A DNA stretch of 64,000 nt from Colwellia sp. C2M11 (GTDB taxonomy: Bacteria; Pseudomonadota; Gammaproteobacteria; Enterobacterales; Alteromonadaceae). A program made the translations under genes and the position numbers. Shown here piece after piece: positions 18,883 through 33,681 of this stretch. Where the stretch lies: the NCBI RefSeq assembly GCF_018860915.1, contig NZ_JAHKQD010000007.1, forward strand, positions 1-64,000, given 5' to 3'. Each line of letters starts with the position of its first letter. The first letter of the stretch is position 1. The notes beneath the pieces are model-generated. The model made no database searches and was not told the DNA's origin. It worked only from the letters and a program-made list of their open reading frames with translations.

Positions 18883-19548
18883 ATGAACGACATATCTCAA
18901 TGATGTTTCACTATCTGCACTGCCAAAAGGGTAACACGTAACCAGTATAAGTTCTTTTATATCAACAACTTCCTTGTTACCCTCATTTTTATAGTTACTT
19001 TTATTCAACAGCACCAATTGCTCTGTAGCCAGATCTAAAATAGTAATTTTTTTCACCTTAAATACGCTAGCATTGCCCGTTTTTAACGTTAAAGTTATGC
19101 TATCGTTTACGCTCAATTCCTCTAAAATACGAAAGTGAGTATCATTGTGCGCTGAGATCACCATAACATTTGATTGGCCTAGTTCAACGCCAGAATCTGC
19201 CCTTTGATTAAGGCCCGGACCAAATGCTAACGCTTGTCCTGAATCATTATTTAACACAATGTGCGACAAGTTAAAACGATCAAAAGTAAGTTTAGCGACG
19301 GGATAAAAATCAGCCCATGGCCAGGGCTTATTTTCCTCAATCGTTTTATTTTTTGATTTAGACGCTTCATGATCATCATCAACACTTATCAATTGCTTTT
19401 GCCAAGTTGACGCTAATAAGACTTGTGCAAAATGCGCTTTTATCATCATGTAACTTGCCATTGCAAAACTAGCTGACGCTATTATCAAAAGCAGTATGAC
19501 CAATGACGATATAATTTTATCCCTCTTACGCGTAAAATTTGTCATCAT
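18874..19548 (-). CDS. class GN (Gram-negative marine) sortase
   Basis: A 224-residue transpeptidase anchored by one N-terminal helix (about 12-36), with the catalytic domain in the periplasm. The sortase triad is visible: His134 in ISAHNDTHF, Cys205 in ILVTCYPFG and Arg218 in SLRYVV. Its only expected substrate is encoded immediately upstream (one start-to-stop junction without gap), the usual two-gene module of marine proteobacteria. The reaction would be cleavage at the LMPTG-like signal and transfer to an unknown acceptor. Confidence 0.9.
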
Positions 19549-21906
19549 TTATTTGGCGCTTAATTCGTTTGAATGACGAACATAACGCTTATGTAAGCGT
19601 AGCGACTTATTTAGTAATTGCATTAGTATGGCGATCGTCATAAATAATAAAGCAAAATATAAATAGCCCGCTATGCCTAAGCTAGTATTCGCCAATGGAA
19701 TTATTTGTGTTGAGCCTGTTGGCATTAAATTTTTTATCGCTTTTGATTTTAATGGTGCACCTTGTTTTCGTGTTATTTCCTCTTCAATAGCGATAAAGCT
19801 CGTATACGGTGAAAGTAAATGATGCTGTAATGCTAAGTTGGTAATTTCAGCCTTAACTATCTCTTTTTGCTCAAGAGAACTTCGACGATGTAGGTCAATT
19901 AAATGGTCAATTTTTTCTTTAGCCCACCACTGTGCAACGCCAATATTTAATTGTTTAACATCAAATGAACTTTCAGCTGAATTCAAGTTAACGCCCGCCT
20001 CTTTAACGTTAGTGATATCTATTTTTTCTTGCCAAGTCATAGCCGCTAATTGACCCGATACGTTAATATATGCATCTACTTTTGATTTTCCTAAACTATC
20101 CTTTTTGTTTGCTTGTTCCTTTAATTCATTTTTCAACCAACGAGCGCTGATCATTAAAGGCTGTCCTGCATATAAATCAGGAATATTTTTTGGAAAGGTC
20201 TCTACCGATTTCATTGGCCAACTCAATTCAACTTTTTGCATTAACGGCTTGCTAATTTGATTAAACAATTGCGTCATTTCATGGCTTACTTCATTGATAC
20301 TTCCAATATAACGATAGGTGCCACGGCCTATTTTTGCTGCTTGTGACATAAAATAACTATTAGGGGCCGAGCCAATACCAATAGTATGTAAACGTGAACT
20401 AGCTAACTTACGTTCAATTAAATTAAATAACTCTGTTTCATTACCGACACTACCGTCAGTAATAAATACAATTTGTTTATATGGGTGATCTTTATTTGAT
20501 GCTGTTAAAGCTTGTTCAATGGCCGGATACATATTAGTACCACCGCCCGCCTCTAGTTGTGATAGCCAATATTTAGCTTGTGCTACATTATCTGCATTCG
20601 CAAGCTTACTGACCTTGAATAAACTTTGTGTGCGATCTTCAAAGGCAATGATGTTAAAGGTATCATTTGAGTTTAATAAATCCAATGCTGTAATCAAAGA
20701 TTGCTTTGCTTGTCTAATTGCCACGCCGCCCATAGAGCCAGACGTATCTATAATATAAATAACATTTTTATCAATCGCTTGTGCATAATCATTACTAGGT
20801 GGCATTAACATTAATAAACCATATTGGTATTTATTATTAGTAACATCTGTTTCTGATTGTATAAAGAAAGCAGCTTTCGGTACATTACCCTGTTCGAGCT
20901 GCCATTCTAAAACAAAGTCTTGATCGAGCTTGGTGTTTTTATCTGCAAGAGATATTAACAGTTTTTCATTTAATGGCGTTTTTGCTATTTGATGGTACAA
21001 ACTAGTAACATTCGTTAATGGTAAACCACCATTTAAATCAACTGACAAGGTGACAGTTTGATTTTGGCTAGTATTTTCACCGGTGTTATCTCTTGTTTGA
21101 ATAGGCGTAATTTCACTGGCATCGGTAACTCTGTCGTTATTCATTGCCCAGCCATGTGAATTGATGCTGGTTGTATTTATTACTTTTAATTCATCACTGG
21201 TATTACTCGCGTTTATTAGCTCTTTGCGATTAATTGCGTGTGATGAAGGGATATAACGAGGCGTTAAGGTTAGCGGAATTCTTAATGAAAAGGTCTCATT
21301 ATTTAATTTTATTGATTGAAAATAGTGTAAATTTATTTTTATCGATTCCCCTGGCGCTATGTTGGCCACTTTTGTGGTAAATAAATTTGGCCGCTGCTGT
21401 GACACCAACCCTACTCTTTTACCTGCTGTTTTCGCTTTTGTATAAAGCTTTTGCGCTTGTTGTTTTTCTTTAATCTTCCCTACTATACGCCTTTCACCTA
21501 TTTCCATGATCATTGAAGAAACAGAGGCATCATCAACCAATGGAAAAACATAAACAGCTTCAACATAGTCATTACTTGCGTTTTTAAAGGTTTGCGTAAA
21601 ATTTACCTTTGCCAGTAAACCGTTAATGGTTACTTGATAATCACTTTGTTGAATTAATGCTGCAGAGTATTTTTCATTATTTTTAAAATACAAAGTACCT
21701 GAGCTAATCGATTGATATGGAATATTGTCCATTGATAATTCATTCGCACTCACTTTTGTCAGCACTAGTAAATAACTAAGGCTCATTATGGCAAGCAAGA
21801 TAGGAGAAAATACGATACTAAGTAGTGAAATACGTAAAGTATAAGGTATTAAGGTGTAATGGGATGACGTTGAAATGGACCCATTAATAGTTGTGCTTTT
21901 TTTCAT
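19549..21906 (-). CDS. marine proteobacterial sortase target protein (VIT and VWA domains)
   Basis: A 785-residue envelope protein: N-terminal hydrophobic signal/anchor (about 22-52), a VIT domain (about 65-195), a VWA domain with a MIDAS DTSGSMG near residue 385, and a C-terminal sorting region. That region reads LMPTG (727-731), then a hydrophobic helix (about 744-764), then a basic tail (KSLRLHKR), which is the LPxTG-like arrangement. The neighbouring sortase is the natural processing enzyme. The start codon lies inside a 14-bp inverted repeat (21902-21942). VIT/VWA pairs suggest adhesion or protein-protein binding at the surface; that role is inferred. Confidence 0.88.
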   Translation of the reverse strand: MKKSTTINGSISTSSHYTLIPYTLRISLLSIVFSPILLAIMSLSYLLVLTKVSANELSMDNIPYQSISSGTLYFKNNEKYSAALIQQSDYQVTINGLLAKVNFTQTFKNASNDYVEAVYVFPLVDDASVSSMIMEIGERRIVGKIKEKQQAQKLYTKAKTAGKRVGLVSQQRPNLFTTKVANIAPGESIKINLHYFQSIKLNNETFSLRIPLTLTPRYIPSSHAINRKELINASNTSDELKVINTTSINSHGWAMNNDRVTDASEITPIQTRDNTGENTSQNQTVTLSVDLNGGLPLTNVTSLYHQIAKTPLNEKLLISLADKNTKLDQDFVLEWQLEQGNVPKAAFFIQSETDVTNNKYQYGLLMLMPPSNDYAQAIDKNVIYIIDTSGSMGGVAIRQAKQSLITALDLLNSNDTFNIIAFEDRTQSLFKVSKLANADNVAQAKYWLSQLEAGGGTNMYPAIEQALTASNKDHPYKQIVFITDGSVGNETELFNLIERKLASSRLHTIGIGSAPNSYFMSQAAKIGRGTYRYIGSINEVSHEMTQLFNQISKPLMQKVELSWPMKSVETFPKNIPDLYAGQPLMISARWLKNELKEQANKKDSLGKSKVDAYINVSGQLAAMTWQEKIDITNVKEAGVNLNSAESSFDVKQLNIGVAQWWAKEKIDHLIDLHRRSSLEQKEIVKAEITNLALQHHLLSPYTSFIAIEEEITRKQGAPLKSKAIKNLMPTGSTQIIPLANTSLGIAGYLYFALLFMTIAILMQLLNKSLRLHKRYVRHSNELSAK

Positions 21907-21942
21907 GATAAAACTCTATAGAAAGTAAAGTTTTATCATGAA
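21902..21942 (-). promoter_or_regulatory. 14-bp inverted repeat covering the sortase-target start codon
   Basis: TTCATGATAAAACT (21902-21915) and AGTTTTATCATGAA (21929-21942) are perfect reverse complements with a 13-base loop. The ATG of the target gene (21904-21906 on the - strand) is in the stem. A second 9-bp pair, 21958-21966 with 22020-22028 (TACAGGGTA/TACCCTGTA), lies upstream. It could limit translation start or bind a protein. Confidence 0.55.
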
Positions 21943-22080
21943 GTGAAATTATGTTTTTACAGGGTAGGAATTATGGCTAACTTATGGCAAATTATGATTA
22001 ATTCACCATAAAGTTTACTTACCCTGTATTTTACTAAAAGTAAATTAATCACAAGCCAAGTTATAACTAATAGAATTATA

Positions 22081-22341
22081 TTAACTTAGCAAAGAATGAC
22101 CTTCTGGCAATTGCTTAGCAATCCATAAGGCCAACTTATGTTTCATATTAGGTTGATCTTCATTGTCAACTGCAAGTGGTTGAATTAAGTTATCATTCAC
22201 TAATAAACGATATAGACTTTCTATTTTATCTTTAGATGAATTGGTTGCAGCAAAGCTTTTATATCCTCGATTAACTGCATATTTTTCACCAATAACAAGT
22301 GCTTTTTTTAATAATTCAGCTTCATTTTTTAATTTTTTCAT
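22081..22341 (-). CDS. DUF5062 family protein
   Basis: An 86-residue soluble helical protein. The N-terminal ELLKKALVIGEKYAVNRGY and central SSKDKIESLYRLLVNDNLI match the small DUF5062 family of Alteromonadales and vibrios. No signal peptide and no known function. It is not obviously linked to the sortase pair (140-base gap) or to the operon ending at 22453. Confidence 0.75.
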   Translation of the reverse strand: MKKLKNEAELLKKALVIGEKYAVNRGYKSFAATNSSKDKIESLYRLLVNDNLIQPLAVDNEDQPNMKHKLALWIAKQLPEGHSLLS

Positions 22342-22452
22342 TTTACTCGATTCTTAAATAAAAACTTGGCTTAAAGATGCTTCAAATAAAGAAGTAAGTC
22401 AATTATCTATTACAATTTATAGCGTATTTAACGAGTATTTCGTTAAGGTCGG

Positions 22453-23175
22453 TTAAAACTCATACTCTACTGCGACTCGCAAGACATGACCTTTGCTTCG
22501 ACTGTCCATTCCTGTGATAAAGCCGACTTCCCACTTTAGCTGCTTTTGTGCATTGAAACGTTGTAATCCCATAAATGCGGGGCCAATTCCTAAATAGTCT
22601 TCACCTAAGTATAGTTCTATTGCTGGTTGAAATTGTTCAATATAGCGATAACGGTACTTAAGGCGAAACTCAGTCTCAAGTTCACTTTTCAGCGTTTTTC
22701 CCCATTCGTAAATTACAAAGGCATTTAACGTCAGGCTAGTACGACCAAACTCTTTTTCAACAATAATACCAGAAGTAACTTCCCAGTTTTTTTGCTCTGT
22801 TTCTTTTTCAACCTCAAACAACAATCCCCAATCAGCCCAATATTCTCCTTGCTCTGTTAGCATCCAACGTGCTTCAAGTTCATAAGACACCAAATCAAAG
22901 TCATTATTACTATATCGCTCACCAACAAGATAAAACTCTAGCATCAAATTTTCACTTACTGATTGACCATAAGCTAGGCGCTGTGCCAATTTATTGTTGT
23001 TGCTTTCTCTATGTGAGAATAAACGCCATTCAACTTCTCTTTCATTCGGTAAGACATAAGGATGGTAAACTTTATCAACGACAACCCCGTCAGCATAAAC
23101 AATAGAAGAGGTAACTAAAGAAATACTCAAGAATATCAGAGCCCAATAGCGATTGATTAATGACATGCTTATCAT
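22453..23175 (-). CDS. predicted outer-membrane beta-barrel protein, last gene of the redox/metal operon
   Basis: A 240-residue protein with a signal peptide (about 1-28, IVYADG junction). The mature part is built of amphipathic strands rich in Glu, Arg, Tyr and Trp and ends VAVEYEF, the terminal Phe typical of outer-membrane barrels. Its start overlaps the FTR1-like gene stop by four bases, so it is translationally coupled. I cannot name the family. The place behind a cupredoxin and a permease-like gene suggests a role in metal or small-molecule passage across the outer membrane. Confidence 0.65.
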   Translation of the reverse strand: MISMSLINRYWALIFLSISLVTSSIVYADGVVVDKVYHPYVLPNEREVEWRLFSHRESNNNKLAQRLAYGQSVSENLMLEFYLVGERYSNNDFDLVSYELEARWMLTEQGEYWADWGLLFEVEKETEQKNWEVTSGIIVEKEFGRTSLTLNAFVIYEWGKTLKSELETEFRLKYRYRYIEQFQPAIELYLGEDYLGIGPAFMGLQRFNAQKQLKWEVGFITGMDSRSKGHVLRVAVEYEF

Positions 23176-23960
23176 GATTTTCTACCATAAAAAGATAATG
23201 AAATATAAGGTAACTTGAGCAGCATTACCGGAAGAATTAAAGCCATAATATAGGAAACTAACTGTAAAAGTGATGGTGTTGTTTCATAGCCAAATAAAAC
23301 AGTTAATAACTGCCCTAATCCTGAATCTTCAGCAATGAACTTGGCACTATCCCAAATAGGCTGGCTACTTGAAAATATATCAACCTGTTGCAAAAACATT
23401 ATTGCGTGCATTAATTGCCCTAACCCATAAAACAATAAAAAATAACAAGAGCTGTGGTTATATATTTTTTTATCCAGATACCTTAATAAGAAATAGAATA
23501 ATATCGATATGCTTAAGCAAATCCCGCCACCGAGTGTTATCCCGATCAGCACCGTTTCATCTTGTTGTGCTTGTGTCCAATAAGACACTAAATAAATTAT
23601 AAAATGGGCGCCATTAAAAACGCTAATAATAAAAAATATCAACATCGCTAAGTATTTTTTAACACTGGTGTAGTCATTTTTATGACTTAAAATAAATAGG
23701 CACACAGTTGATAAATACACAATAATAGCGCCGAATGATAAAAACAATTCAGTTCCTTTGCCATCAAGTATTAGAGATAAATTTTCTAAATGACTACTTA
23801 AAATAACAGACATAATTACGGTTAAAATAACGCCGATAAAAACTTTCTTAGCATTGACAATATCAAGATAATTTATCGCAAAGTACCTTAATAATAATGA
23901 GGTAATAATGAAGACAGGTAGCGCATTATTTAAAAACAAAAGTACGGTATTAATTAGCAT
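23172..23960 (-). CDS. FTR1-like membrane protein without the REXXE iron motif
   Basis: A 262-residue protein with seven hydrophobic helices. The C-terminal half (GLGQLMHAIMFLQQ, then WDSAKFIAEDSGLGQLLTVLFGYETTPSLLQL) follows the conserved C-terminal pattern of FTR1-family iron permeases. Helix 1 reads LLFLNNALPVFIITSLLL, where FTR1 proteins carry RExxE, and no second RExxE is present. It may be a sensor, a transporter of something else, or an electron-transfer membrane partner. It overlaps the cupredoxin gene by 11 bases. Confidence 0.65.
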   Translation of the reverse strand: MLINTVLLFLNNALPVFIITSLLLRYFAINYLDIVNAKKVFIGVILTVIMSVILSSHLENLSLILDGKGTELFLSFGAIIVYLSTVCLFILSHKNDYTSVKKYLAMLIFFIISVFNGAHFIIYLVSYWTQAQQDETVLIGITLGGGICLSISILFYFLLRYLDKKIYNHSSCYFLLFYGLGQLMHAIMFLQQVDIFSSSQPIWDSAKFIAEDSGLGQLLTVLFGYETTPSLLQLVSYIMALILPVMLLKLPYISLSFYGRKS

Positions 23961-24342
23961 CTTGTTTTCCTTTTTCTAGCTTTTGCTGACTACTTTCTAC
24001 AACAATTACTTTTCCTCGAGCACTGTGAGGATGATATTCACCAAAAAAACTATATTCGCCAACAGGAAGCGGACCAATAAAAATACTTGCTTGTTTATTG
24101 GGAAAAATAACTTTTTCACGATTAAGATCGAAGCTGTCAAACTCTTCAATATTTTCGTCATGATTGTCTATAACCAATTTAATTTTTTTATTTGCCGGAA
24201 TAACGATAACGGCAGGATAAAACAAATGGTTTTTTATCTTGATATGATACTCAGACTTTTGCGCCTGTACATGTAAAGTAAGGAGCAGTAAAAGGCTAAC
24301 TAAAACAATACGTAAATAACGAATTAATTGAATGTTATCCAT
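23950..24342 (-). CDS. periplasmic cupredoxin-like protein (EfeO/FtrB-type domain)
   Basis: A 130-residue protein with a signal peptide (1-27) and one cupredoxin fold. FYPAVIVIPANKKIKLVIDN, EEFDSFDLNREKVI (66-79) and LPVGEYSFFGEYHPHS (92-107) follow the cupredoxin domain found in EfeO and in FtrB-like iron-uptake proteins. Possible metal ligands are Glu66/Glu67 and His104/His106; a complete type 1 copper set (Cys-Met) is not visible. It overlaps the kinase gene upstream by eight bases and the FTR1-like gene downstream by 11. Confidence 0.75.
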   Translation of the reverse strand: MDNIQLIRYLRIVLVSLLLLLTLHVQAQKSEYHIKIKNHLFYPAVIVIPANKKIKLVIDNHDENIEEFDSFDLNREKVIFPNKQASIFIGPLPVGEYSFFGEYHPHSARGKVIVVESSQQKLEKGKQDAN

Positions 24343-25765
24343 GAGTGTCTATTTCTTCATTTGCTGTGGCGGGAAATATTACTTCAACTTTGAGCCCTTT
24401 TAATAATGTAGAACGTGATAACTGTATGTTAGCGCCATGTAAATCAGCAATATGTTTTACAATTGCTAAGCCCAAACCACAACCAAAGATGTCTGAATCA
24501 TGTTGATCTCCGCCAACGCGATAAAAACGATCAAACACACGCTGATATTCTGTTTCATCGATTCCTTGGCCAGAATCTTCAACACAAAGCGCTATCGTTT
24601 TATTTCTACCTTGCGTTACGCTAATAAGAATTTCGCCTTCTATCGGTGTGTATTTATTCGCATTAGAAATTAAGTTAGTGGCAAGTAAATGAACTGAAAA
24701 TTCATGAGCAGATAAGAAGATATCATCACTTTCTAACGTAATTACTTGGTCTTTATGTAAAATATCGTTATACAGCTCTGCTATCACTTGTTTAAGTAGC
24801 ACGTTGATATTAAAAGCACTGCTTACGTTACTTATTTGAGCAGGGTTAGTTCGATTTAAGTTTAATATTTGATCTATAACATGCCCCATTCTATCTACAC
24901 TATTATTTAACGCGTGTATGGAGCTAAAATTTTCAATATCAGTAGATGTTAACTGTTGATTTCTATTACTTATTGAACGTTCAGCTAAATCTTGAATCAG
25001 GTTATGTGTATCTATCTTTAAAACACTTAATGGTGTTTTTAATTCATGCGCAGCATCAGAGGCAAAGTGTCGTTCACGTTGAAAAGCAGCATCGAGGCGA
25101 GCAAACAATTCATTTAATGTTGCTACAATATCAGCCAATTCATTATTATCGACTTCTACATTTAAAGGGCTAAAGTCGTTACTTTTTCTTCTACTAAGCT
25201 CAAAACTAAGCTTATGTAATGGTTTCAAACCTTGTGTAATAATAATAAATATTAATAGTGACAATACTGCAATAGCAACTATCATCGGCGTTACGGCTGC
25301 TAGAATTAGTGTTTGGGTTAAAGAAAATTGTGCTTTAAGTGGTTGAGCAACAATCACAACCATATTATCATTAGGCGCTAAAAATAGTGATGACAACGCT
25401 ACAGCACGCCAACGTTGATCTAAAAAATTCACCTCAAAAAATTCAGTTCCTTGGTGGGAGCTTAATGCGATATTAGTAATTAGATGATCGGGTGCATTAT
25501 TACTTTTTAATATTAATCGTTTGTTTTTCCATACTTGAAAAGCAAAAGCACTTTGCTGGACTACTTGTAACGTTTTATCTCTATTAATATTTGCATTTGG
25601 CATACTATTCATTGCAGTTAATGTTTGTGCAAGGCTTAATAGTTGTTGATCAAACCCCGCCTCAGCTTGAGACATACTTTGCTTATAACCTTGAATTGCA
25701 GCGATAAATGTTATTAATGTTAATACTGAAAAAAGTGTTAAAACTAAATAACGTCGAATACTCAT
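24335..25765 (-). CDS. sensor histidine kinase (QseC/PmrB-like)
   Basis: A 476-residue kinase: helix at about 7-24, a periplasmic sensor region of roughly 130 residues, a second helix at about 155-178, HAMP-like linker, then HisKA with the phospho-acceptor His240 in AAHELKTPLS. The ATPase domain has the N-box LATNLISNANKYTP, DSGQGID and GCGLGLAIVKHIADLHG. It follows the response regulator by two bases and probably responds to an envelope redox or metal cue for the operon. The signal is not evident from the sequence. Confidence 0.9.
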   Translation of the reverse strand: MSIRRYLVLTLFSVLTLITFIAAIQGYKQSMSQAEAGFDQQLLSLAQTLTAMNSMPNANINRDKTLQVVQQSAFAFQVWKNKRLILKSNNAPDHLITNIALSSHQGTEFFEVNFLDQRWRAVALSSLFLAPNDNMVVIVAQPLKAQFSLTQTLILAAVTPMIVAIAVLSLLIFIIITQGLKPLHKLSFELSRRKSNDFSPLNVEVDNNELADIVATLNELFARLDAAFQRERHFASDAAHELKTPLSVLKIDTHNLIQDLAERSISNRNQQLTSTDIENFSSIHALNNSVDRMGHVIDQILNLNRTNPAQISNVSSAFNINVLLKQVIAELYNDILHKDQVITLESDDIFLSAHEFSVHLLATNLISNANKYTPIEGEILISVTQGRNKTIALCVEDSGQGIDETEYQRVFDRFYRVGGDQHDSDIFGCGLGLAIVKHIADLHGANIQLSRSTLLKGLKVEVIFPATANEEIDTHG

Positions 25766-25767
25766 AA

Positions 25768-26448
25768 TTACCCTTTGGTATTTATTATGTAACCAACACC
25801 ACGAACATTTTTAATAAACTTTTCCGGTAAGTATTTTCTTAATTTATGAATATGCACTTCTACCGCATTACTGAGTACTTCTTCTCCCCAATGATATAGT
25901 TTTGATTCTATTTTCTCACGCGATAAAATTCTACCTGCATTTTCCATTAGCGCTTTTAGTACCATGTATTCTTTCTTAGTAAATGTGATTTCGTGCTCTT
26001 TACCTGTAACTTGATCACACACAAATACTTTATGTGCATAGGTATCTAATTTCACCTCATCAATACAAATAAAAGCTGTATTAGCCGTGCCTAATCGTCG
26101 TTCAATAACACGTAGACGTGCCATTAACTCTTTAATTTCAAATGGTTTAGTTAAGTAATCATCGGCACCATAATCTAAGCCTTTCACTTTACTTTCAATA
26201 GAGTCTCGTGCGGTTAGAATAATAACGGGTAAAGCTGATTTTTTTTCACGTAATTGTTTTAAGATCTCAAGGCCATCTATATCTGGTAATCCTAAATCTA
26301 GAATCATCATATCTTGATCATCACAGGCTAACGCGCTTAATGCTAATTTTCCCTGCTGAAGATGATTAACAACAAACCCTTCTGTTTGAAGCGACTTTTG
26401 CAGTGCTGTTGCAAGCGGAATGTCATCTTCAACTAACAATATGCGCAT
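25768..26448 (-). CDS. OmpR/PhoB-family response regulator
   Basis: A 226-residue regulator. Receiver domain with acidic pair EDD (7-9), phospho-acceptor Asp51 (MMILDLGLPDIDG), switch Thr in ILTARDS and Lys in LTKPF. C-terminal winged helix (about 130-224) with the ITFTKKEYMVLKALMENAG and VEVHIHKLRKYL segments. It is embedded between apbE-like and kinase genes with one- and two-base gaps, so it is coexpressed with the system it probably controls. Confidence 0.93.
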   Translation of the reverse strand: MRILLVEDDIPLATALQKSLQTEGFVVNHLQQGKLALSALACDDQDMMILDLGLPDIDGLEILKQLREKKSALPVIILTARDSIESKVKGLDYGADDYLTKPFEIKELMARLRVIERRLGTANTAFICIDEVKLDTYAHKVFVCDQVTGKEHEITFTKKEYMVLKALMENAGRILSREKIESKLYHWGEEVLSNAVEVHIHKLRKYLPEKFIKNVRGVGYIINTKG

Positions 26449-26449
26449 A

Positions 26450-27370
26450 TTATCTCCTTGACCAGAATTTTATTTCTTGTTCGGTTAAAAATTGTTCCGC
26501 ATTACTCCCTTGCAGTAGTGCTAATGTTGCTAATATGCCAGCTTGAATACACTGTGGTGCAACAGCGGTAATTGAACGCGGAGCATTCGCAATAGGCCAA
26601 CCTGTTTTAGCATTAAGAATATGCCCATAACGAATATTATCTTTTATCAAAAACCGTTTAGCATCCCCACTGGTAGCAAGCGCACCTGACTTGAGTGAAA
26701 TAATCATATCCGCATTTTGATTAATATGACTATCAACGTCAGGATGCTCGATGGCAACTTGCCATGTTTCATTGTTATAGCGTGGACCAGAAACGGCCAA
26801 ATCACCACCTAAATTAACTAAAACTGGTTGCTCTGTTAACTGTTTTGCTAAAATAATACTGCGATCAACCGCGTATTCTTTGCCTATGCCACCAAAATCA
26901 ATTTCCATCCCTCTAGCTAAGGTTATTTGTTGGCGATCAAAGTGTATTTTATGCCAACCAACATAGGGTAAAACAGTATTGATTGATGTTTGCGAGGGAA
27001 ACTTTGCATAATGCTCATTGCGACCTTGAAAGCGCCAAACCTTTCTTAAAACACCTGAACTGATATCAAACAAGCCATCACTCAATTGATAACATTGATC
27101 GGCAAAAACTAACAATTGATAAGTTTCTTCATCAATAGCAATAGGTTTTCCAGCATTGTTATTAATTAATGTACAAAGACTATCTTGATTATAACGGTTA
27201 TATTTATCTTCAATCCGCCAAACCTCTTTGGTCACTCTATTACCAATTATTAATGCTAATGCTTTGTCTGTTGTTTGTATAATAACTTCACAAGGACTCG
27301 CCATAGCATTAAATTGAATACTATAGCTGTCTTTGTTCGTTATGAAGTTAGTGGCTCTGCTCTTAGTCAA
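26450..27370 (-). CDS. ApbE-family FAD:protein FMN transferase-like protein
   Basis: A 306-residue protein. Family motifs: MASPCEV (23-29), RIEDKYNRYNQDS (52-64), GLFDISSG (99-106), MEIDFGGIGKEYAVDR (155-170), NLGGD (186-190), SGALATSGDAKRF (228-240) and HILNAKTGWP (250-259). Two departures: no signal peptide or lipobox is visible, although most ApbE proteins are exported, and the late A-D-x-L-x-T motif reads QAGILAT, so the usual Mg-ligand Asp is Gly278. Either FMN transfer works differently here or the protein has another job. A possible target motif is in the neighbouring DUF3570 protein. Confidence 0.85.
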   Translation of the reverse strand: MTKSRATNFITNKDSYSIQFNAMASPCEVIIQTTDKALALIIGNRVTKEVWRIEDKYNRYNQDSLCTLINNNAGKPIAIDEETYQLLVFADQCYQLSDGLFDISSGVLRKVWRFQGRNEHYAKFPSQTSINTVLPYVGWHKIHFDRQQITLARGMEIDFGGIGKEYAVDRSIILAKQLTEQPVLVNLGGDLAVSGPRYNNETWQVAIEHPDVDSHINQNADMIISLKSGALATSGDAKRFLIKDNIRYGHILNAKTGWPIANAPRSITAVAPQCIQAGILATLALLQGSNAEQFLTEQEIKFWSRR

Positions 27371-27427
27371 AAAATTCTCTATTTAAAACCCCTTGTTCCG
27401 ACATAAAACAAAGGAAAACCTATATCG

Positions 27428-28747
27428 TTAGAAAGAGTAAGTTACTTGCGCAATAACCGCATCAACACTCGGATAAAGATCAACACTTTTTAATACGCCA
27501 ATCTCATCAAAACCTGCATCGGTTGGTCTTTGACTATAATACTCAATTCTAAAAGATAATTCATGGCCATTATTAACCAACATGCCATATTTTAAACCAA
27601 CAGTATAAGCTGTCATTTCTCCTATGCGGTAATCGGCACTAGCAAAAGCAGGTATTGACTCATTGTCGATTAAAAATGGTTGATAAAAATCAGCGGCACT
27701 TTGTTGATAAAACCTAAAATGTGGTTGTAAATAGCTTTCTTTACCAAAGCTATCACCTAAGGGTATTCTAAAACGAGAGTCGATGGTATGAGACTTTATT
27801 TTCCAGTCATCCCACATATAGCGATAAGACACATCCAATACTGTTGTATCAAAATGATATAAGGATTGAGCAAATACACTTTGTTTCACGCGAGAATCAG
27901 GACGTGATTCATAAATATAATCTTGTGCTTCGCCATTATTATTGACGACAGACAATACTTTAAATGGGTCTGTTAAATAGCCATCTACCGTTGAATAGGA
28001 ATAATTAAATTGCATCAACATTCTACGGTTAATTACCTGCGTAAAACCAAGTAAAATATCGACAGTCGTTTTATCGTCCTCACTCCCTATTCGTGTAGCT
28101 GAAAAATCATCATCCCAACTGTCAGCATTACTATCACCAATAAGCATAGATGAAAAAGCTTGCGGCAACCCGCCTTCTGGTGAGAAAGTATCCTTAAAAT
28201 AACTAAAACCTGCTGAAAAAGTTGAGTTTTTACGATCAAAATCTACAGCGATATTACCGTTGATACCTAATGACAAGTAATCATATTCTTTAGAAAGGTG
28301 TAACCCGCCACTTGCTGTATAGTCAGGTGCTATAGGTTGTGTCCATTGTGCGTTAAGTTGCACACGCGTATCTCTAAACGTATCATCAAGTGGTGTTTCT
28401 GCTGGCGCTATTTGATATTGTCCATTACCTGATGGTCGAGTAAATGTTTGCACTGTGGGTTGCGCTACCGCACCATTAGCAGAAGCACCAGTTAAAGTAT
28501 CGATGGTTAATTTTAGATTTAAAATTTCTTCAGTATCAAATGTTTTTTGTGCATTAAAAATAGCTTCACCGGCACTTACTCTGTCAGCTTCGCTATAGTA
28601 TAAAATGGCAGTATCAAACTTCCATTCATCTGGCTCTGTCTCAAACGTATTTGATTCAGCATGAGCTAAACTGTTTGTACCAAGCAACGTTGCAGCAGCA
28701 ATAGTTAACACAGCTTTAATGTTTGGTTTTTCGGTTATATTTTTCAT
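27428..28747 (-). CDS. DUF3570 family outer-membrane beta-barrel with flavinylation-like motif
   Basis: A 439-residue protein: signal peptide (about 1-30, LAHAES junction), then repeated amphipathic strands and a C-terminal VIAQVTYSF, typical of an outer-membrane barrel. Near the N-terminus LTIDTLTGASANGAV (81-94) holds D83-x-L-T-G-A-S89, closely resembling the D-x-[ILV]-S-G-A-T motif at which ApbE attaches FMN in NqrC/RnfG-type proteins, with Ser in place of the acceptor Thr. It is flanked by DUF4266 and ApbE genes. That it is a flavoprotein is my inference. Confidence 0.8.
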   Translation of the reverse strand: MKNITEKPNIKAVLTIAAATLLGTNSLAHAESNTFETEPDEWKFDTAILYYSEADRVSAGEAIFNAQKTFDTEEILNLKLTIDTLTGASANGAVAQPTVQTFTRPSGNGQYQIAPAETPLDDTFRDTRVQLNAQWTQPIAPDYTASGGLHLSKEYDYLSLGINGNIAVDFDRKNSTFSAGFSYFKDTFSPEGGLPQAFSSMLIGDSNADSWDDDFSATRIGSEDDKTTVDILLGFTQVINRRMLMQFNYSYSTVDGYLTDPFKVLSVVNNNGEAQDYIYESRPDSRVKQSVFAQSLYHFDTTVLDVSYRYMWDDWKIKSHTIDSRFRIPLGDSFGKESYLQPHFRFYQQSAADFYQPFLIDNESIPAFASADYRIGEMTAYTVGLKYGMLVNNGHELSFRIEYYSQRPTDAGFDEIGVLKSVDLYPSVDAVIAQVTYSF

Positions 28748-28843
28748 ATGTTTTCTTCAGATGTGATTACAGACTATTGATTTTATTTAACGTACATAAA
28801 ACTCACGATTTTCTATACTAAGTAGTAAAATAATGATGTAAGG

Positions 28844-29077
28844 TTAGTTACAGCCACATCCACCGCCACCAAAGCCTTTACCACCACTTGATGCCTCTTT
28901 ACTGAAATAGATATGATCATCAAGCGCAGAGTCAACAGGCGATGCATTTAATAGCATCTCTTTCTTCGCTAATAAATCTCGTTCCCACGGTTCAACACCC
29001 AAACCTAAGCTGGAACAGCCTGATGTAACCGTCAGCGTTGAAGCGATTAATACTATATTTTTTATTGTAGACATCAT
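28844..29077 (-). CDS. DUF4266 family lipoprotein with Gly-rich CGCN tail
   Basis: A 77-residue protein. The lipobox TSGC places the lipidated Cys at residue 21. The short mature chain (VEPWERDLLAKKEML, then ALDDHIYFSKEAS) ends in a Gly-rich tail with Cys74 and Cys76 in CGCN. That pattern is the DUF4266 hallmark. The start ATG overlaps the thioredoxin gene stop (TAATG), so the pair is translationally coupled, which makes the thioredoxin a likely partner for the two tail cysteines. Function unknown; metal, disulfide or cofactor attachment at the tail is possible. Confidence 0.8.
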   Translation of the reverse strand: MMSTIKNIVLIASTLTVTSGCSSLGLGVEPWERDLLAKKEMLLNASPVDSALDDHIYFSKEASSGGKGFGGGGCGCN

Positions 29078-29583
29078 TATTTAACCTCTTTTTCAGTTAA
29101 GAATTGTTCAATTTCTTGTTGATATTGTTTAATTTTATTAGTAAAAAATCCGGTGTGTCGTGATTTTATTGTTCCATCTCGGCCAATAAGCATACTGCTC
29201 GGCATCCCTTGAATATTAAAATGTTTTGCTAGCTTACCTTTAGGATCATAAATAACAGGAAAACTCGCAGGCATTTCTATTAGAAACTTTTCAGCTAATG
29301 CTTTATTCGCGTCTAGGTTGATACTAACGACCGTAAAACCTTGTTGCTTATATTTGTCTTGTATTGTATTCATCCAGGGGAAAGATTTACGACAAGGAAC
29401 ACACCATGATGCCCAAAAATCGATATAAATCACTTTACCTTTATGTTCAAGCAACGTTTGCTCTAACAAAGTTTTACTACTAGCTACGGGGGTTTGGTTG
29501 CTTTGTGCATTGGTAGTAAATGTAACAGTTACTAATACAATAAAGCCTATAATGAATTGCACTGGTTTAATTAAGTTTTTCAA
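29077..29583 (-). CDS. TlpA-like periplasmic thioredoxin-fold protein
   Basis: A 168-residue protein with a signal peptide (1-26, TNAQS junction) and a TlpA/ResA-type domain: VIYIDFWASWCVPCRKSFP with the redox pair Cys61/Cys64, VVSINLDANKALAEKF, and cis-Pro segment IQGMPSSMLIG. It is the first gene of the nine-gene operon. It probably keeps thiols of the coupled DUF4266 lipoprotein reduced or handles a cofactor attachment site; cytochrome c maturation is less likely because no ccm genes are nearby. Confidence 0.88.
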   Translation of the reverse strand: MKNLIKPVQFIIGFIVLVTVTFTTNAQSNQTPVASSKTLLEQTLLEHKGKVIYIDFWASWCVPCRKSFPWMNTIQDKYKQQGFTVVSINLDANKALAEKFLIEMPASFPVIYDPKGKLAKHFNIQGMPSSMLIGRDGTIKSRHTGFFTNKIKQYQQEIEQFLTEKEVK

Positions 29584-29911
29584 GTATCACCTGGTTTAAA
29601 GTTTTGATTAATAATTCATTAAACCATAGCTTAAGTCTCTTTTCTTAACGAATACTTAAACAAATTTAATGAACCTAATTTTATTGATATGATTTTTTGA
29701 TATAGAGCTGCTATTTATCAATTGAATAAATAAATTGGCTAATTTTTTGCTTTTTTGCTGTTTAAATTAGTTTTATTTAATTTTATTTCATTATTTTATA
29801 CATTTAGGTTGCTTTTTACTGCTGAGCTGTCAAAGTATCAGTTACTAATTAGTGTAACAGCACTAATTACTCACAATTCGATTCAACAATAATTAAAGGA
29901 GTAGCGCTTCA
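29584..29911. promoter_or_regulatory. divergent intergenic region of tlpA-like operon and asnB
   Basis: The 328 bases have no gene and are very AT-rich. They must hold the promoters of both transcription units. The only clear element is the perfect palindrome at 29846-29869. Confidence 0.6.
29846..29869. promoter_or_regulatory. operator-like palindrome upstream of asnB
   Basis: TAATTAGTG (29846-29854) and CACTAATTA (29861-29869) are perfect 9-bp inverted repeats with a 6-base spacer, 42 bases before the asnB start. The size and symmetry suit a dimeric regulator. The binding protein is unknown. Confidence 0.5.
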
Positions 29912-31576
29912 ATGTGTTCGATCTTTGGTATATTAGATATAAAAACAGGTGCTGATGCACTTCGTCCTCAAGCTTTAGAATATTCTCGCCTATTACGTCA
30001 CCGTGGACCAGATTGGTCAGGCATTTACAGTAATGACCATGCAATACTCGTGCATGAACGTTTATCAATTGTTGATACTGAACATGGTGCTCAACCGTTA
30101 TACAACAATGACAAAACTAATGTTTTAGCGGTAAATGGTGAGATTTATAATCATAAAGCTCTGGCAGAAAACCTAACTGTTGATTACGAATTTCAAACAG
30201 CCTCTGACTGTGAAGTGATTTTACCTTTATATGAAGAATTCGGTGCTGAATTTGTAGATAAACTACAAGGCATGTTCGCGTTTTGTTTATATAATTCAAA
30301 AGACAACAGCTACCTAATTGCACGTGACCATATTGGTATTATTCCTTTATATACAGGTTATGATGCTGAAGGTAACTTCTATGTTGCTTCAGAAATGAAA
30401 GCATTAATGCCTATTTGTAAAACAGTATCTGAATTCCCTCCTGGGCATATTTTAGATAGCCGTGTTGGCAAATTACAAAAATATTACAAACGTAACTGGC
30501 AAGATTACGCGGCAATTAAAGACAATACGACTAGCAAAACTAAAATTCGTGAAGCATTAGAAGAGTCGGTTAAAAGTCATTTAATGACGGATGTACCATA
30601 TGGTGTTTTATTGTCTGGTGGTTTAGATTCATCATTAATTTCTGCTATTACACAAAAGTTTGCTGCTCGTAGAATAGAAGACAATGACTTAGCTGAAGCT
30701 TGGTGGCCAAAAGTTCACTCATTTGCTTGTGGTTTAGCTGGCTCTCCTGATTTAGTCGCCGCACAAACAGTTGCTGATAGTATTGGTACTACCCATCATA
30801 GCGTTATCTTTACCGAGCAAGAAGGTATTGATGCACTTAAAGAAGTTATCTACCATTTAGAAACTTACGATGTAACCACTATTCGTGCTTCTACCCCTAT
30901 GTATTTAATGGCTCGTAAAATTAAAGCCATGGGTATTAAAATGGTACTTTCTGGTGAAGGTGCTGATGAAATATTTGGTGGTTACCTATATTTCCATAAA
31001 GCGCCAAATGCTCAAGAATTCCATGAAGAGTTATTACGTAAACTTGATAGATTACACAAGTTTGACTGTTTACGTGCTAACAAATCAATGTCTGCTTGGG
31101 GTATTGAAGCTCGTGTACCATTCTTAGATAAAAACTTTATGGATGTTGCAATGCGCATTAACCCTGCAGATAAAATGTGTGGTAACGGTGTTATGGAAAA
31201 AGCTATTTTACGTGAATCTTTTGAAGGTTATTTACCAAAAGAAATCTTATGGCGTCAAAAAGAACAATTTTCTGACGGTGTAGGTTATTCATGGATTGAT
31301 GGTTTAAGAGCACACGTTGAAACATTAGTAACAGATCAACAACTTGAGAATGCTCATATCAGATTCCCGGTAAATACACCTGATACTAAAGAAGGTTACT
31401 ACTACCGCACTATTTTTGAAGAAAAATATCCATTAGCAACTGCTGCTGATTGTGTGATTGGTGGTAAATCTGTCGCTTGTAGTACAGAAGAAGCACTAGC
31501 TTGGGATGAAAGCTTTAAAAACAATGCTGATCCATCGGGTCGTGCAGTATTGAGTGTTCATAATGAAAGTTATTAA
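29912..31576 (+). CDS. asnB: asparagine synthase B (glutamine-hydrolysing)
   Basis: It converts aspartate, glutamine and ATP to asparagine. The 554-residue length equals the E. coli enzyme. Cys2 is the N-terminal nucleophile after Met removal (MCSIFGI); LRHRGPDWSG (30-39) and VNGEIYNH complete the glutaminase domain; the synthetase domain has the PP-loop LLSGGLDSS near residue 233 and SGEGADEIFGGY. AAGGAG at 29896-29901 precedes the ATG. Monocistronic. Confidence 0.96.
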   Translation: MCSIFGILDIKTGADALRPQALEYSRLLRHRGPDWSGIYSNDHAILVHERLSIVDTEHGAQPLYNNDKTNVLAVNGEIYNHKALAENLTVDYEFQTASDCEVILPLYEEFGAEFVDKLQGMFAFCLYNSKDNSYLIARDHIGIIPLYTGYDAEGNFYVASEMKALMPICKTVSEFPPGHILDSRVGKLQKYYKRNWQDYAAIKDNTTSKTKIREALEESVKSHLMTDVPYGVLLSGGLDSSLISAITQKFAARRIEDNDLAEAWWPKVHSFACGLAGSPDLVAAQTVADSIGTTHHSVIFTEQEGIDALKEVIYHLETYDVTTIRASTPMYLMARKIKAMGIKMVLSGEGADEIFGGYLYFHKAPNAQEFHEELLRKLDRLHKFDCLRANKSMSAWGIEARVPFLDKNFMDVAMRINPADKMCGNGVMEKAILRESFEGYLPKEILWRQKEQFSDGVGYSWIDGLRAHVETLVTDQQLENAHIRFPVNTPDTKEGYYYRTIFEEKYPLATAADCVIGGKSVACSTEEALAWDESFKNNADPSGRAVLSVHNESY

Positions 31577-31597
31577 TACATAAAAAGTGACCTTAAG

Positions 31598-31643
31598 ACT
31601 TTTAGTGGGCCGATCGTTTTTCTTACGTTTACCCACTAAAAGT
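31598..31643 (+). terminator. hairpin after asnB
   Basis: ACTTTTAGTGGG (31598-31609) pairs with CCCACTAAAAGT (31632-31643). The loop is long (about 22 bases) and no U run follows. It may act as a terminator or 3' end stabiliser. Confidence 0.5.
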
Positions 31644-31755
31644 AATCCCTGCCCATTGTTAACCATTTATTTTTATAGAAAACATAACCATCAAAAAATT
31701 ATTATTATCAATAATTTTTATCAATAGCTTGTCGACACTTTTCATTAACTGTTAA

Positions 31756-33681
31756 TTAACCAATAACGACTTGATTTCGTCCATCAGCTTTTGCTTGATA
31801 AAGTAACGCATCGGCGTTTTTAATATAAAAATCAAGGTTATTATTAGTTTTACTCGTTATTGATGCTCCAACACTAAAAGTGATATCCCAATCGAGAGCA
31901 GGATGCTCACTTTTAATATCGATACAATAATTAGCAAAATTTTCATTTAAACGTTTAAAAATATTATCTACCACTGACTTTTTGGTTGTGTGTAAAATAA
32001 ATAACCATTCTTCACCACCATAACGACCAAATTTATCATGGTCTCTTAATGTTTTTCTGGCAGCATTGGCAAAAGCTATCAGCACTAAATCACCTACATC
32101 ATGACCTAAAGTATCATTAATCTTTTTAAAGTAATCTAAATCAACAATGGCAATAGTTAACTCGTTATCAAATAAACTGTTTTCGGCCATTACCATAATA
32201 CCTCGTCTATTTGGGCAACTAGTGAGGTAATCAGTGTTTGCAATCGTATGATATTTTTTACGTTGACTCACTTGTCTATTAATCAAAAATAATGAAACAA
32301 GTATCAAAATTACGGCAATAACCGTACTTAAACGCCAAATTATTTTTTGTTGATATTCTTCCTTAGCTTTAAATTCACTCATAGCATTAACTTGGGCTAA
32401 GCGAAGTATTTCAGCTTCCTTTTCTTTTACTTCAAATTTAACTTGTAGTGTTCTAATATTATTTTCACTTGTAGCTTCTAGATGTTTTTTCGTGAAGATA
32501 AGCTCTTGCTCAATGGCGTCAAAAGCCTCTTCATCTAAGCCCAATTGCCGTTTTAATTTATACCGTTTACTTAAAAAATTAGACTTATAAATACTTCGAC
32601 TAAACTTATCCAATAAAGCAAAAACTTCATCATTTATCTCATTTGCTTTTTCTATTAAACCTTGTGCAATATAAATATCGCTTACTAAAATCATCGATGC
32701 TAAATGCATATCATGTACACCTGCGGCACGAGCAAGTGCAATATTGTCATATATATCTCTCAAAGCTTCATCATAATGCCCTTCAGAAAATTCAATTCTT
32801 GAAATGATATATTGAGAAAAAGCAATACCTGTATGCATATTCACTGACTTAAAATACTGCAATGCCTTTTTCAGGTACACTAACGCTCCTTCATTATCGC
32901 CCCTATCTTGCAGTATAGTGCCCATACTCCAATAGGCTTTTGAGGTTAAATGCTCATCATTCGTTTTTTCGTAAGCTATAATCGCTTGTTTTGAGAAACT
33001 TAACGCTTTGTCATTTTCATCTGAAAAATTATAAGCGTCACTTATTTTACGTAGAAAAAAGCCTTGCGATGAAAAATCATCATAAGTTATTGCTAGTTCT
33101 AATCCTTTTACAGATACCTCAAGCGTTTTTTTAAGCTTATCTACAGAAGTATAGTAATAAGACAAGGCACGAAAAATAATAACCTTTTCTTTATCATTGG
33201 AAAGTAATACCTGTTCTTCTAATTGCTTAGCTAATGCTTTAGCTGCTGTAGGATCTTCATGTCGAGAAAGGTACTTCAATTTAGCTTCAAGTAATAGTAA
33301 ATATAAATCCCGCTGCTTCTTAATTCCTTCATTTTCTATATAGGCATTAATATGGTGATTAAGGGTTTCATATTGTTCTTGTCTAAAAAGTAATTCACTA
33401 TATAAAACAGCTGCTTCAAGGTGTATATCATCCCAAGATTTATTTTTACTCATTTCAAATATAGTTTGGAATTCTTTTTCATTCTTGAGATAATCAAGCT
33501 TATTCGCTCTTAGATTGTTGATAAAGCTCTTAGCAGTTTTATAATCGATTGACTGAACTGCTGATTCAATGGGGCTAGTCTTAGCTAACAGTTTGTTATT
33601 AAGAAAAATGAAGAGAATAAAAATTAGACACTTTGCAAACACAATATAATAATTATGTGAGTTGTTAATTCTATTTAACAT
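31756..33681 (-). CDS. TPR-containing membrane diguanylate cyclase (GGDEF)
   Basis: A 641-residue protein: N-terminal signal/anchor helix (about 13-33), tetratricopeptide-like helical repeats through about residue 390 (for example SKAYWSMGTILQDRGDNEGALVYLKKALQYF), a membrane helix at about 443-463, and a cytoplasmic GGDEF domain (about 480-640). The active-site loop reads RYGGEEW, with Trp in the last position of the usual GG(D/E)EF, and an RNQVV end. The Mg-binding and nucleotide residues look intact, so c-di-GMP synthesis controlled by a periplasmic TPR sensor is plausible. It stands alone. Confidence 0.88.
   Translation of the reverse strand: MLNRINNSHNYYIVFAKCLIFILFIFLNNKLLAKTSPIESAVQSIDYKTAKSFINNLRANKLDYLKNEKEFQTIFEMSKNKSWDDIHLEAAVLYSELLFRQEQYETLNHHINAYIENEGIKKQRDLYLLLLEAKLKYLSRHEDPTAAKALAKQLEEQVLLSNDKEKVIIFRALSYYYTSVDKLKKTLEVSVKGLELAITYDDFSSQGFFLRKISDAYNFSDENDKALSFSKQAIIAYEKTNDEHLTSKAYWSMGTILQDRGDNEGALVYLKKALQYFKSVNMHTGIAFSQYIISRIEFSEGHYDEALRDIYDNIALARAAGVHDMHLASMILVSDIYIAQGLIEKANEINDEVFALLDKFSRSIYKSNFLSKRYKLKRQLGLDEEAFDAIEQELIFTKKHLEATSENNIRTLQVKFEVKEKEAEILRLAQVNAMSEFKAKEEYQQKIIWRLSTVIAVILILVSLFLINRQVSQRKKYHTIANTDYLTSCPNRRGIMVMAENSLFDNELTIAIVDLDYFKKINDTLGHDVGDLVLIAFANAARKTLRDHDKFGRYGGEEWLFILHTTKKSVVDNIFKRLNENFANYCIDIKSEHPALDWDITFSVGASITSKTNNNLDFYIKNADALLYQAKADGRNQVVIG

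What the first reader, a model, noticed from the sequence alone, without database searches (positions are those of the whole stretch)
22453..29583. Nine-gene envelope redox/metal operon: TlpA - DUF4266 - DUF3570 - ApbE - two-component pair - cupredoxin - FTR1-like - outer-membrane protein
Seen: nine same-strand genes. From ApbE to the last gene the junctions are 1-2 base gaps or 4-11 base overlaps, and TlpA/DUF4266 are coupled by TAATG. Known: ApbE attaches FMN to exported proteins, EfeO-type cupredoxins and FTR1 proteins serve iron uptake, TlpA proteins handle thiols. Inference: a flavin/thiol/metal electron-transfer system across the envelope, controlled by its own kinase. I know of no described function for the whole set. 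DUF3570, DUF4266, ApbE and thioredoxin genes may form the conserved core, with the cupredoxin-FTR1-like-OMP trio as a second module.
Basis: partly seen in the sequence, partly recalled or inferred. Interest (0 to 1): 0.85.

Follow-up and report, generated by a model that had tools for sequence, protein, structure and literature searches.

The report
Flavin-barrel redox operon with iron cassette
Nine neighbouring genes in a marine bacterium encode a known but poorly understood flavin-and-thiol electron chain that appears to end in an outer-membrane barrel, joined to a five-gene regulatory and iron-transport-like cassette that related bacteria also use elsewhere; it may be a way to move electrons through the outer membrane without haem.

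Summary
In detail: nine tightly packed same-strand genes (22453-29583), each under purifying selection, in an order conserved in Colwellia and relatives. They form two modules. (1) TlpA-DUF4266-DUF3570-ApbE is already in print as the DsbD-type flavinylation system (PMC8238504), where a DUF3570 was shown to be an ApbE substrate. (2) Response regulator-kinase-cupredoxin-FTR1-like-OMP is a separate, exchangeable cassette, present at 80 of 80 returned named loci: 27 have the flavin core nearby, 41 a thermostable-hemolysin/AMP-ligase cluster (2 both, 14 neither). The modules meet in several arrangements, so the link looks selected. New points: the flavin motif lies on the predicted outer side of a 16-stranded barrel; the operon's ApbE has no signal peptide and belongs to a subfamily with altered metal-site residues, suggesting flavin attachment before export; the OMP is a predicted 12-stranded acid-rich barrel fused to intact FTR1 permeases at 6 of 28 distant loci, a candidate outer-membrane partner for FTR1-type iron systems; the window's FTR1-like protein has lost both REXXE motifs and should not be called an iron permease. 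Best reading: thiol-to-flavin reduction at the outer membrane linked to iron handling. Function is untested.

The parts
29077..29583 (-). TlpA/ResA-like thioredoxin (168 aa, signal-like N-terminus, WCVPC active site)
   Evidence: WC..C in 52 of 52 and 26 of 27 relatives in two overlapping sets
28844..29077 (-). DUF4266 small lipoprotein-like protein (77 aa)
   Evidence: Pfam PF14086 79.8 bits
28847..28858 (-). C-terminal CGCN tail of DUF4266 (candidate redox Cys pair)
   Evidence: 57 of 57 and 27 of 27 relatives in two overlapping sets end in CGCN
27428..28747 (-). DUF3570 outer-membrane barrel, predicted 16 strands, candidate ApbE substrate
   Evidence: Pfam 521.8 bits; model pLDDT 82.1; generic barrel matches
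28481..28501 (-). flavinylation motif DTLTGAS (residues 83-89)
   Evidence: D..[ST]G[AS]S in 31 of 31 and 27 of 27 close relatives in two overlapping sets
27389..27415 (-). weak terminator-like stem between DUF3570 and ApbE
   Evidence: number of sites not above shuffles
26450..27370 (-). ApbE, FAD:protein FMN transferase, no signal peptide (TTG start, in-frame stop 5 codons upstream), KEYA/xAG subfamily
25768..26448 (-). OmpR-type response regulator
24335..25765 (-). sensor histidine kinase (2CSK_N sensor)
23950..24342 (-). EfeO-type cupredoxin, Cys-free, conserved acidic residues
   Evidence: Pfam Cupredoxin_1 96.7 bits
23172..23960 (-). FTR1-derived multi-helix membrane protein without REXXE motifs
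23916..23930 (-). NNALP at the place of the first REXXE motif
   Evidence: alignments
22453..23175 (-). predicted 12-stranded acid-rich outer-membrane barrel, conserved partner of FTR1-type genes
   Evidence: pLDDT 91.2

Best explanation
The operon encodes a haem-free electron relay ending at the outer membrane, co-expressed with an FTR1-derived iron-handling cassette and a two-component switch. Proposed order: (1) DsbD, encoded elsewhere in this genome, passes electrons to TlpA (inferred). (2) TlpA reduces the CGC cysteines of DUF4266, a lipoprotein-like carrier with a glycine-rich tail (inferred). (3) DUF4266 reduces an FMN covalently held on Ser89 of DUF3570 (that a DUF3570 is an ApbE substrate is shown in print for one species; the site here is a motif match). 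(4) The FMN is attached by the operon's own signal-less ApbE, most likely in the cytosol before export and barrel insertion (inferred). (5) In the model Ser89 lies on the long-loop, by rule extracellular, side of a 16-stranded barrel, so the flavin would donate electrons to an acceptor at or outside the outer membrane, Fe(III) being the likeliest given the partner cassette (inferred). (6) Reduced iron would enter through the 12-stranded acidic barrel and be held by the acidic cupredoxin (inferred). In this lineage the FTR1-derived protein lost its iron-transport motifs, so inner-membrane import would use another route (a FeoB gene is present) and the FTR-like protein would act as partner or sensor. 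The kinase/regulator pair switches the set on (inferred).
For: Core membership and flavin chemistry: PMC8238504 (passages). Flavin motif in 31 of 31 and 27 of 27 close DUF3570s. DUF4266 ends in CGCN in 57 of 57 and 27 of 27. DsbD (Pfam DsbD_TM) next to ApbE at L134 and L104, just behind the cassette at L127, and on the far side of the cassette at L140 (these four were scanned); one DsbD in the own genome. Barrel and site: 16 strands, the five long loops all on one side, motif at the end of strand 3 on that side, loop 88-123 the best conserved of the long loops. ApbE without signal peptide (relatives). Modules joined upstream, downstream and convergently, and again at L224 with an FTR1 that keeps both REXXE motifs. 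OMP fused to FTR1 at 6 of 28 loci. In print, FTR1-P19 iron systems carry a thioredoxin or an FMN-binding protein and have an unidentified outer-membrane receptor (PMC6083913 passages). FeoB in the own genome.
Against: No experiment was run. The iron link rests on relatives: 0 of 80 named cassette loci keep a REXXE motif. Most core loci fetched through DUF4266 lack the cupredoxin-FTR-OMP trio (of 48, L057-L104, only L090 has it). The cassette adjoins the T_hemolysin/AMP-ligase cluster (41 of 80) more often than the core (27 of 80). The side of Ser89 comes from a model of middling confidence there (pLDDT 78-82 per ten residues) whose coordinates were not inspected. A cytosolic ApbE acting on an exported barrel is unusual; the genome also has a lipoprotein-type ApbE that could act in the periplasm. 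By a crude hydropathy measure 4 of 57 core-linked ApbEs reach 2.0 near the N-terminus, though from long upstream starts or the first core strand as I read them.
Confidence: 0.5

Rival explanations
1. Envelope thiol/flavin housekeeping or stress repair: the chain reduces oxidised outer-membrane or periplasmic substrates, and the cassette is a co-regulated metal-stress response, not iron uptake.
For: Kinase and regulator rank closest to QseBC, PmrAB and heavy-metal CusRS-type pairs in NCBIfam, all below cut-off; FTR-like lacks REXXE; the same cassette serves a different gene cluster.
Against: Cassettes with intact FTR1 in other families, and FTR1-OMP fusions, point to iron.
Confidence: 0.25
2. 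Two unrelated units side by side: the RR-HK-cupredoxin-FTR-OMP cassette is a generic regulated block that happens to neighbour the flavin core.
For: No DUF3570 in the fetched stretch at 53 of 80 cassette loci (one of them, L112, is cut by its contig end beside ApbE); core without cassette at most DUF4266 loci fetched; 57-base gap with a terminator-like stem inside the core.
Against: Core and cassette adjoin upstream, downstream and convergently, and in a further family at L224; gap of one base from ApbE to the regulator in the window.
Confidence: 0.15
3. Electrons flow inwards: the outer-membrane flavin oxidises an external donor and passes electrons to DUF4266 and TlpA.
For: No sequence evidence fixes the direction; PMC8238504 notes that it could in principle be reversed.
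Against: DsbD and TlpA normally deliver reductant outwards (established knowledge of these families); DsbD adjoins the core in some relatives.
Confidence: 0.1

Closest known systems
DsbD-type flavinylation clusters (Meheust et al. 2021, PMC8238504)
   Same: ApbE, DUF3570 with a [ST]GA[ST] motif, thioredoxin-like protein, DUF4266 with terminal CXC
   Different: DsbD not in the window operon (one copy elsewhere); one acceptor motif here where the paper reports two; extra five-gene cassette; the signal-less ApbE subfamily and the side of the flavin are not discussed in the passages read
FTR1-P19 iron uptake with thioredoxin or FMN-binding partner (PMC6083913, and the P19 section of PMC8238504)
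   Same: FTR1-family protein, small periplasmic metal-type protein, thioredoxin or flavin partner
   Different: cupredoxin not P19, no ABC genes, an added outer-membrane barrel, FTR-like protein without REXXE in this lineage
EfeUO iron systems and EfeO cupredoxins (PMC9174327)
   Same: Cupredoxin_1 domain and EfeU/FTR1 homology
   Different: no M75 domain or EfeB gene in the operon, no REXXE, no Cys for a copper site, added OMP and kinase pair
Mtr outer-membrane cytochrome conduit
   Same: works-like comparison only: electron transfer through an outer-membrane barrel; MtrB is one of many generic barrel matches
   Different: no CXXCH motif in any of the nine proteins; flavin and thiols in place of haem
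12-stranded outer-membrane barrels (COG4313 channel 4rl8, FapF 5o65/5o68)
   Different: no sequence match among PDB chains at E up to 1

Membership tests
DsbD-type DUF3570 flavinylation system | DUF3570 with a D-x-x-[ST]-G-A-[ST] motif | tested here: met
   DTLTGAS at residues 83-89; one motif, not the two reported for the family
DsbD-type DUF3570 flavinylation system | ApbE beside DUF3570 | tested here: met
DsbD-type DUF3570 flavinylation system | DUF4266 with C-terminal CXC | tested here: met
DsbD-type DUF3570 flavinylation system | thioredoxin-like gene in the cluster | tested here: met
   (Redoxin/TlpA type; the paper counts PF13899)
DsbD-type DUF3570 flavinylation system | DsbD encoded in the same cluster | tested here: not met
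   only copy at G000:C6; the paper also counts 316 clusters of these four genes without DsbD
DsbD-type DUF3570 flavinylation system | covalent FMN on DUF3570 | not testable with these tools
   shown in print for Chlorobium luteolum
FTR1/EfeU iron permease | Pfam FTR1 above gathering score | tested here: not met
   no match in the window protein or the own genome
FTR1/EfeU iron permease | two REXXE motifs (recalled as the iron-transport motif) | tested here: not met
   NNALP and NGAHF at the two places
FTR1/EfeU iron permease | about seven membrane helices and homology to FTR1 | tested here: met
   ten overlapping hydrophobic windows that I read as seven helices; aligned with a Pfam-positive FTR1 from L055
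EfeO-type cupredoxin | Cupredoxin_1 domain | tested here: met
   96.7 bits, cut-off 27
EfeO-type cupredoxin | Cys/His/Met copper site (recalled) | tested here: not met
   Cys beyond residue 35 in 2 of 81; no Cys or Met column above 50%, one His column at 93%
P19-FTR1 system | P19 protein | tested here: not met
   no P19 family among Pfam matches of the ten proteins scanned
12-stranded COG4313-like channel | 12-stranded barrel fold | tested here: met
   (prediction)
12-stranded COG4313-like channel | sequence homology | tested here: inconclusive
   no PDB sequence match at E up to 1; COG models not available
Mtr-type cytochrome conduit | multi-haem c-type cytochromes | tested here: not met
   no CXXCH in the nine proteins

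The most novel reading that the evidence does not exclude
A haem-free trans-outer-membrane electron conduit: a barrel charged with covalent FMN in the cytosol by a dedicated signal-less ApbE subfamily, exported and inserted so that the flavin sits on the outer side, and reduced from within by the Cys-tipped C-terminal tail of the DUF4266 lipoprotein entering the barrel; coupled in several lineages to an FTR1-type iron system with its own outer-membrane channel.
Probability: 0.25. Interest if true: 0.88.

Novelty: new variant of a known kind. Interest (0 to 1): 0.62.

Why it matters
DUF3570-based electron transfer is in print, but its function, the place of the flavin and the electron path are not. 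If the flavin is on the outer side of the barrel, this is a way to move electrons through the outer membrane without cytochromes in common marine bacteria. The OMP, found fused to FTR1 permeases, is a concrete candidate for the outer-membrane step that a published model of FTR1-P19 uptake leaves as an unidentified receptor. The signal-less ApbE makes flavinylation before export directly testable.

Tried and rejected
Idea that the FTR-like protein lost REXXE when the cassette joined the flavin core: rejected, because 0 of 80 named cassette loci keep a motif whether or not the core is near, while L224 has the core next to an FTR1 with both motifs. Type-1 copper protein: rejected for lack of conserved Cys. 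Hydropathy as a test of export: weak, since DUF3570 itself scores low (median 1.72, against 2.4-2.6 for TlpA, DUF4266, OMP and cupredoxin, and 1.22 for ApbE with 4 of 57 at 2.0 or more); absence of a signal in the window's ApbE rests on the sequence and the upstream in-frame stop and on comparison with other ApbEs. RNA family search of 19000-33000: nothing. Promoter and terminator scan: no excess over shuffles. PDB sequence searches with DUF3570 and OMP profiles: nothing at E up to 1. Fold comparison of DUF3570 gave only generic barrels. The supplement of PMC8238504 could not be read, so earlier listing of some of these neighbourhoods there is not excluded. One search stopped with an error after printing its counts; the missing part was done. 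In one search the split ApbE of L073 was dropped for length.
Full report
What is there. Pfam and NCBIfam give the families listed under parts. The flanks look unrelated: a DUF5062 and a VIT/VWA protein downstream, an asparagine synthase and a GGDEF protein upstream. Against a close relative (81-97% amino-acid identity) and a more distant one (60-88%), dN/dS is 0.04-0.22 for all nine genes, the FTR-like one 0.17-0.18, so none looks like a decaying gene. The genus is most likely Colwellia: contigs of four same-genus handles have exactly the lengths of named Colwellia records.

Two modules. A search of 41 genomes (own included) with the FTR-like protein matched 13. Of the 12 relatives' loci, 9 carry all nine genes in the same order, one is cut by its contig end, one (L055) has only RR-HK-cupredoxin-FTR-OMP, one neither. 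A search of named genomes with the OMP profile gave 241 relatives, of which the best 80 loci were returned. All 80 have the five-gene cassette. DUF3570 lies in the fetched stretch (about 9 kb each side where the contig allows) at 27 of 80: 17 in the window's arrangement; 2 with a further gene between ApbE and the regulator (both Psychrosphaera; DsbD by Pfam in L134, the one scanned); 2 without ApbE (Pseudocolwellia); 2 with the core downstream; 3 convergent (Paraglaciecola); 1 about 7 kb away. At 41 of 80 the neighbourhood holds at least three of four families (thermostable hemolysin, AMP-ligase, haem-oxygenase-like, TPR) of a second cluster first seen at L055, which also has an SDR gene; 2 loci have both, 14 neither, one of these (L112) cut beside ApbE. 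In a class-wide sample 36 of 369 genomes, own included, have the OMP. Of 20 class-level stretches fetched, L224 has the cassette convergent to the core. Conversely, 73 of 295 order-level genomes, own included, have DUF4266; of the 48 such loci fetched (L057-L104) seven have a regulator/kinase pair beside the core but only L090 has the whole cassette. So the core is common alone, and the cassette is a plug-in that has met it in several arrangements. Genus sampling is uneven and no tree was made, so the number of independent joinings is not known.

Core: known. PMC8238504 (abstract, outline, passages and section 15 read; [quoted passage not shown] luteolum DUF3570 is flavinylated with its ApbE. 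It leaves the function uncertain. Search of the held library for DUF3570 or DUF4266 gave that paper only. In the window protein the motif is DTLTGAS; six residues on, where I take a second motif to lie, it reads NGAV, without an acceptor, so one FMN is expected (my reading; the C. luteolum sequence was not seen). In two overlapping sets, 31 of 31 and 27 of 27 close DUF3570s have D..[ST]G[AS]S, 29 and 27 of them strictly ..GAS. Of 16 divergent DUF3570s in stretches without ApbE, 7 keep a VD.[IV][ST]GAS motif, 8 have no such motif and 1 a different one; in the one of these loci scanned with Pfam (L061) the neighbours are a protein with the HZS_alpha middle domain, an SH3/barrel protein and TPR proteins. 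DUF4266 ends exactly in CGCN in 57 of 57 and 27 of 27.

DUF3570 as a barrel. The AlphaFold model from 28 sequences (pLDDT 82.1, pTM 0.76) has 16 long strands and a C-terminal Phe. Connections after even strands are 2-6 residues long; the five connections of 18 or more residues all follow odd strands. Taking the C-terminus as periplasmic, the usual rule, the long side is extracellular, and the motif lies at the end of strand 3 on that side. The loop behind it (88-123) is the best conserved long loop: 15 of 36 columns invariant, against 3 of 35, 10 of 29, 9 of 27 and 1 of 18 in the others; mean share of the commonest residue 0.83 against 0.60-0.73. Fold comparison gave general barrels (BamA, porins, TonB receptors, MtrB). 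That the flavin faces outwards is an inference from topology.

ApbE. The window's ApbE starts at TTG 27370 with an in-frame stop five codons upstream and no hydrophobic start; relatives look alike by eye, with the hydropathy caveat given under evidence against. In 58 of 59 ApbEs from the fetched loci the motif is K-E with x-G where the own genome's lipoprotein ApbE has KGYG and ADG (the sets share genomes; the exception, L065, is a canonical ApbE at a locus without a DUF3570 hit). In a wider sample, 74 of 114 class-level genomes have ApbE; of 105 listed matches 89 were examined (the two own ones and 14 mostly low-scoring ones left out): 72 have Gly/Asp, 13 Glu/Gly, 4 other. The 13 have N-terminal hydropathy of at most 1.32; 70 of the 72 have 1.74 or more (one of the other two is cut at its start). 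DUF3570 is detected in the stretch for 9 of 13 against 2 of 72; the stretches of 29 loci, none of them Glu/Gly, were shorter (1.5 kb each side, not about 3 kb), which favours this contrast. In E. coli ApbE, Asp280 and Thr284 bind the metal (PMC4767422 table passage; the position match is mine). The Thr is kept here; the new Glu may replace the lost Asp. A cytosolic ApbE is known for a soluble fumarate reductase (PMC12052999 passages). One dedicated to an outer-membrane protein would mean flavinylation before export; this is inference, and the lipoprotein-type ApbE is a rival enzyme.

Mechanism and its status. Shown in print: flavinylation of a DUF3570 in one species. Shown here: gene order, conservation, motifs, module exchange, fusions, loss of REXXE, ApbE subfamily. 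Predicted: barrel topology. Inferred: electron path DsbD to TlpA to DUF4266 to FMN, outward direction, iron as acceptor, entry of iron through the OMP, control by the kinase pair. A FeoB gene in the own genome offers an inner-membrane route that does not need the FTR-like protein.

Verdict. A real, conserved operon. Its core is a member of a published system; the whole is a new variant because of the exchangeable cassette. Its interest lies in testing where the flavin sits at the outer membrane and whether the OMP is the missing outer-membrane partner of FTR1.

Noticed in passing
L203, L204, L207, L208, L209, L211: Single ORFs of 515-526 aa that fuse an FTR1 permease (two REXXE motifs) to the outer-membrane barrel through an internal signal-like segment.
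   Followed up: partly
L061 (Pfam); similar gene lengths at L057, L060, L062, L063, L068, L069, L076, L079, L080, L082, L083, L085, L096, L100, L101: TlpA-DUF4266-DUF3570 without ApbE next to a roughly 900-aa protein (HZS_alpha middle domain in L061), an SH3/barrel protein and TPR proteins; some of these DUF3570s keep the flavin motif, others do not.
   Followed up: partly
L102-L104: DUF4266 with a long N-terminal extension beside DUF3570 and ApbE; in L104, the one scanned, DsbD follows ApbE and Tad pilus genes (TadF, T2SSF twice, T2SSE) adjoin.
   Followed up: partly
L055 and 41 of the 80 named loci L105-L184: The same five-gene cassette beside a thermostable-hemolysin, AMP-ligase, haem-oxygenase-like, SDR and TPR cluster of unknown product.
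   Followed up: partly
window 19549-21906: VIT/VWA protein of 785 aa downstream of the operon; an ORF of the same length lies at the same place in the closest relative (L045).
   Followed up: no
L072:9862-10653: DUF364/DUF4213 putative heavy-metal chelation protein between DUF3570 and ApbE.
   Followed up: no
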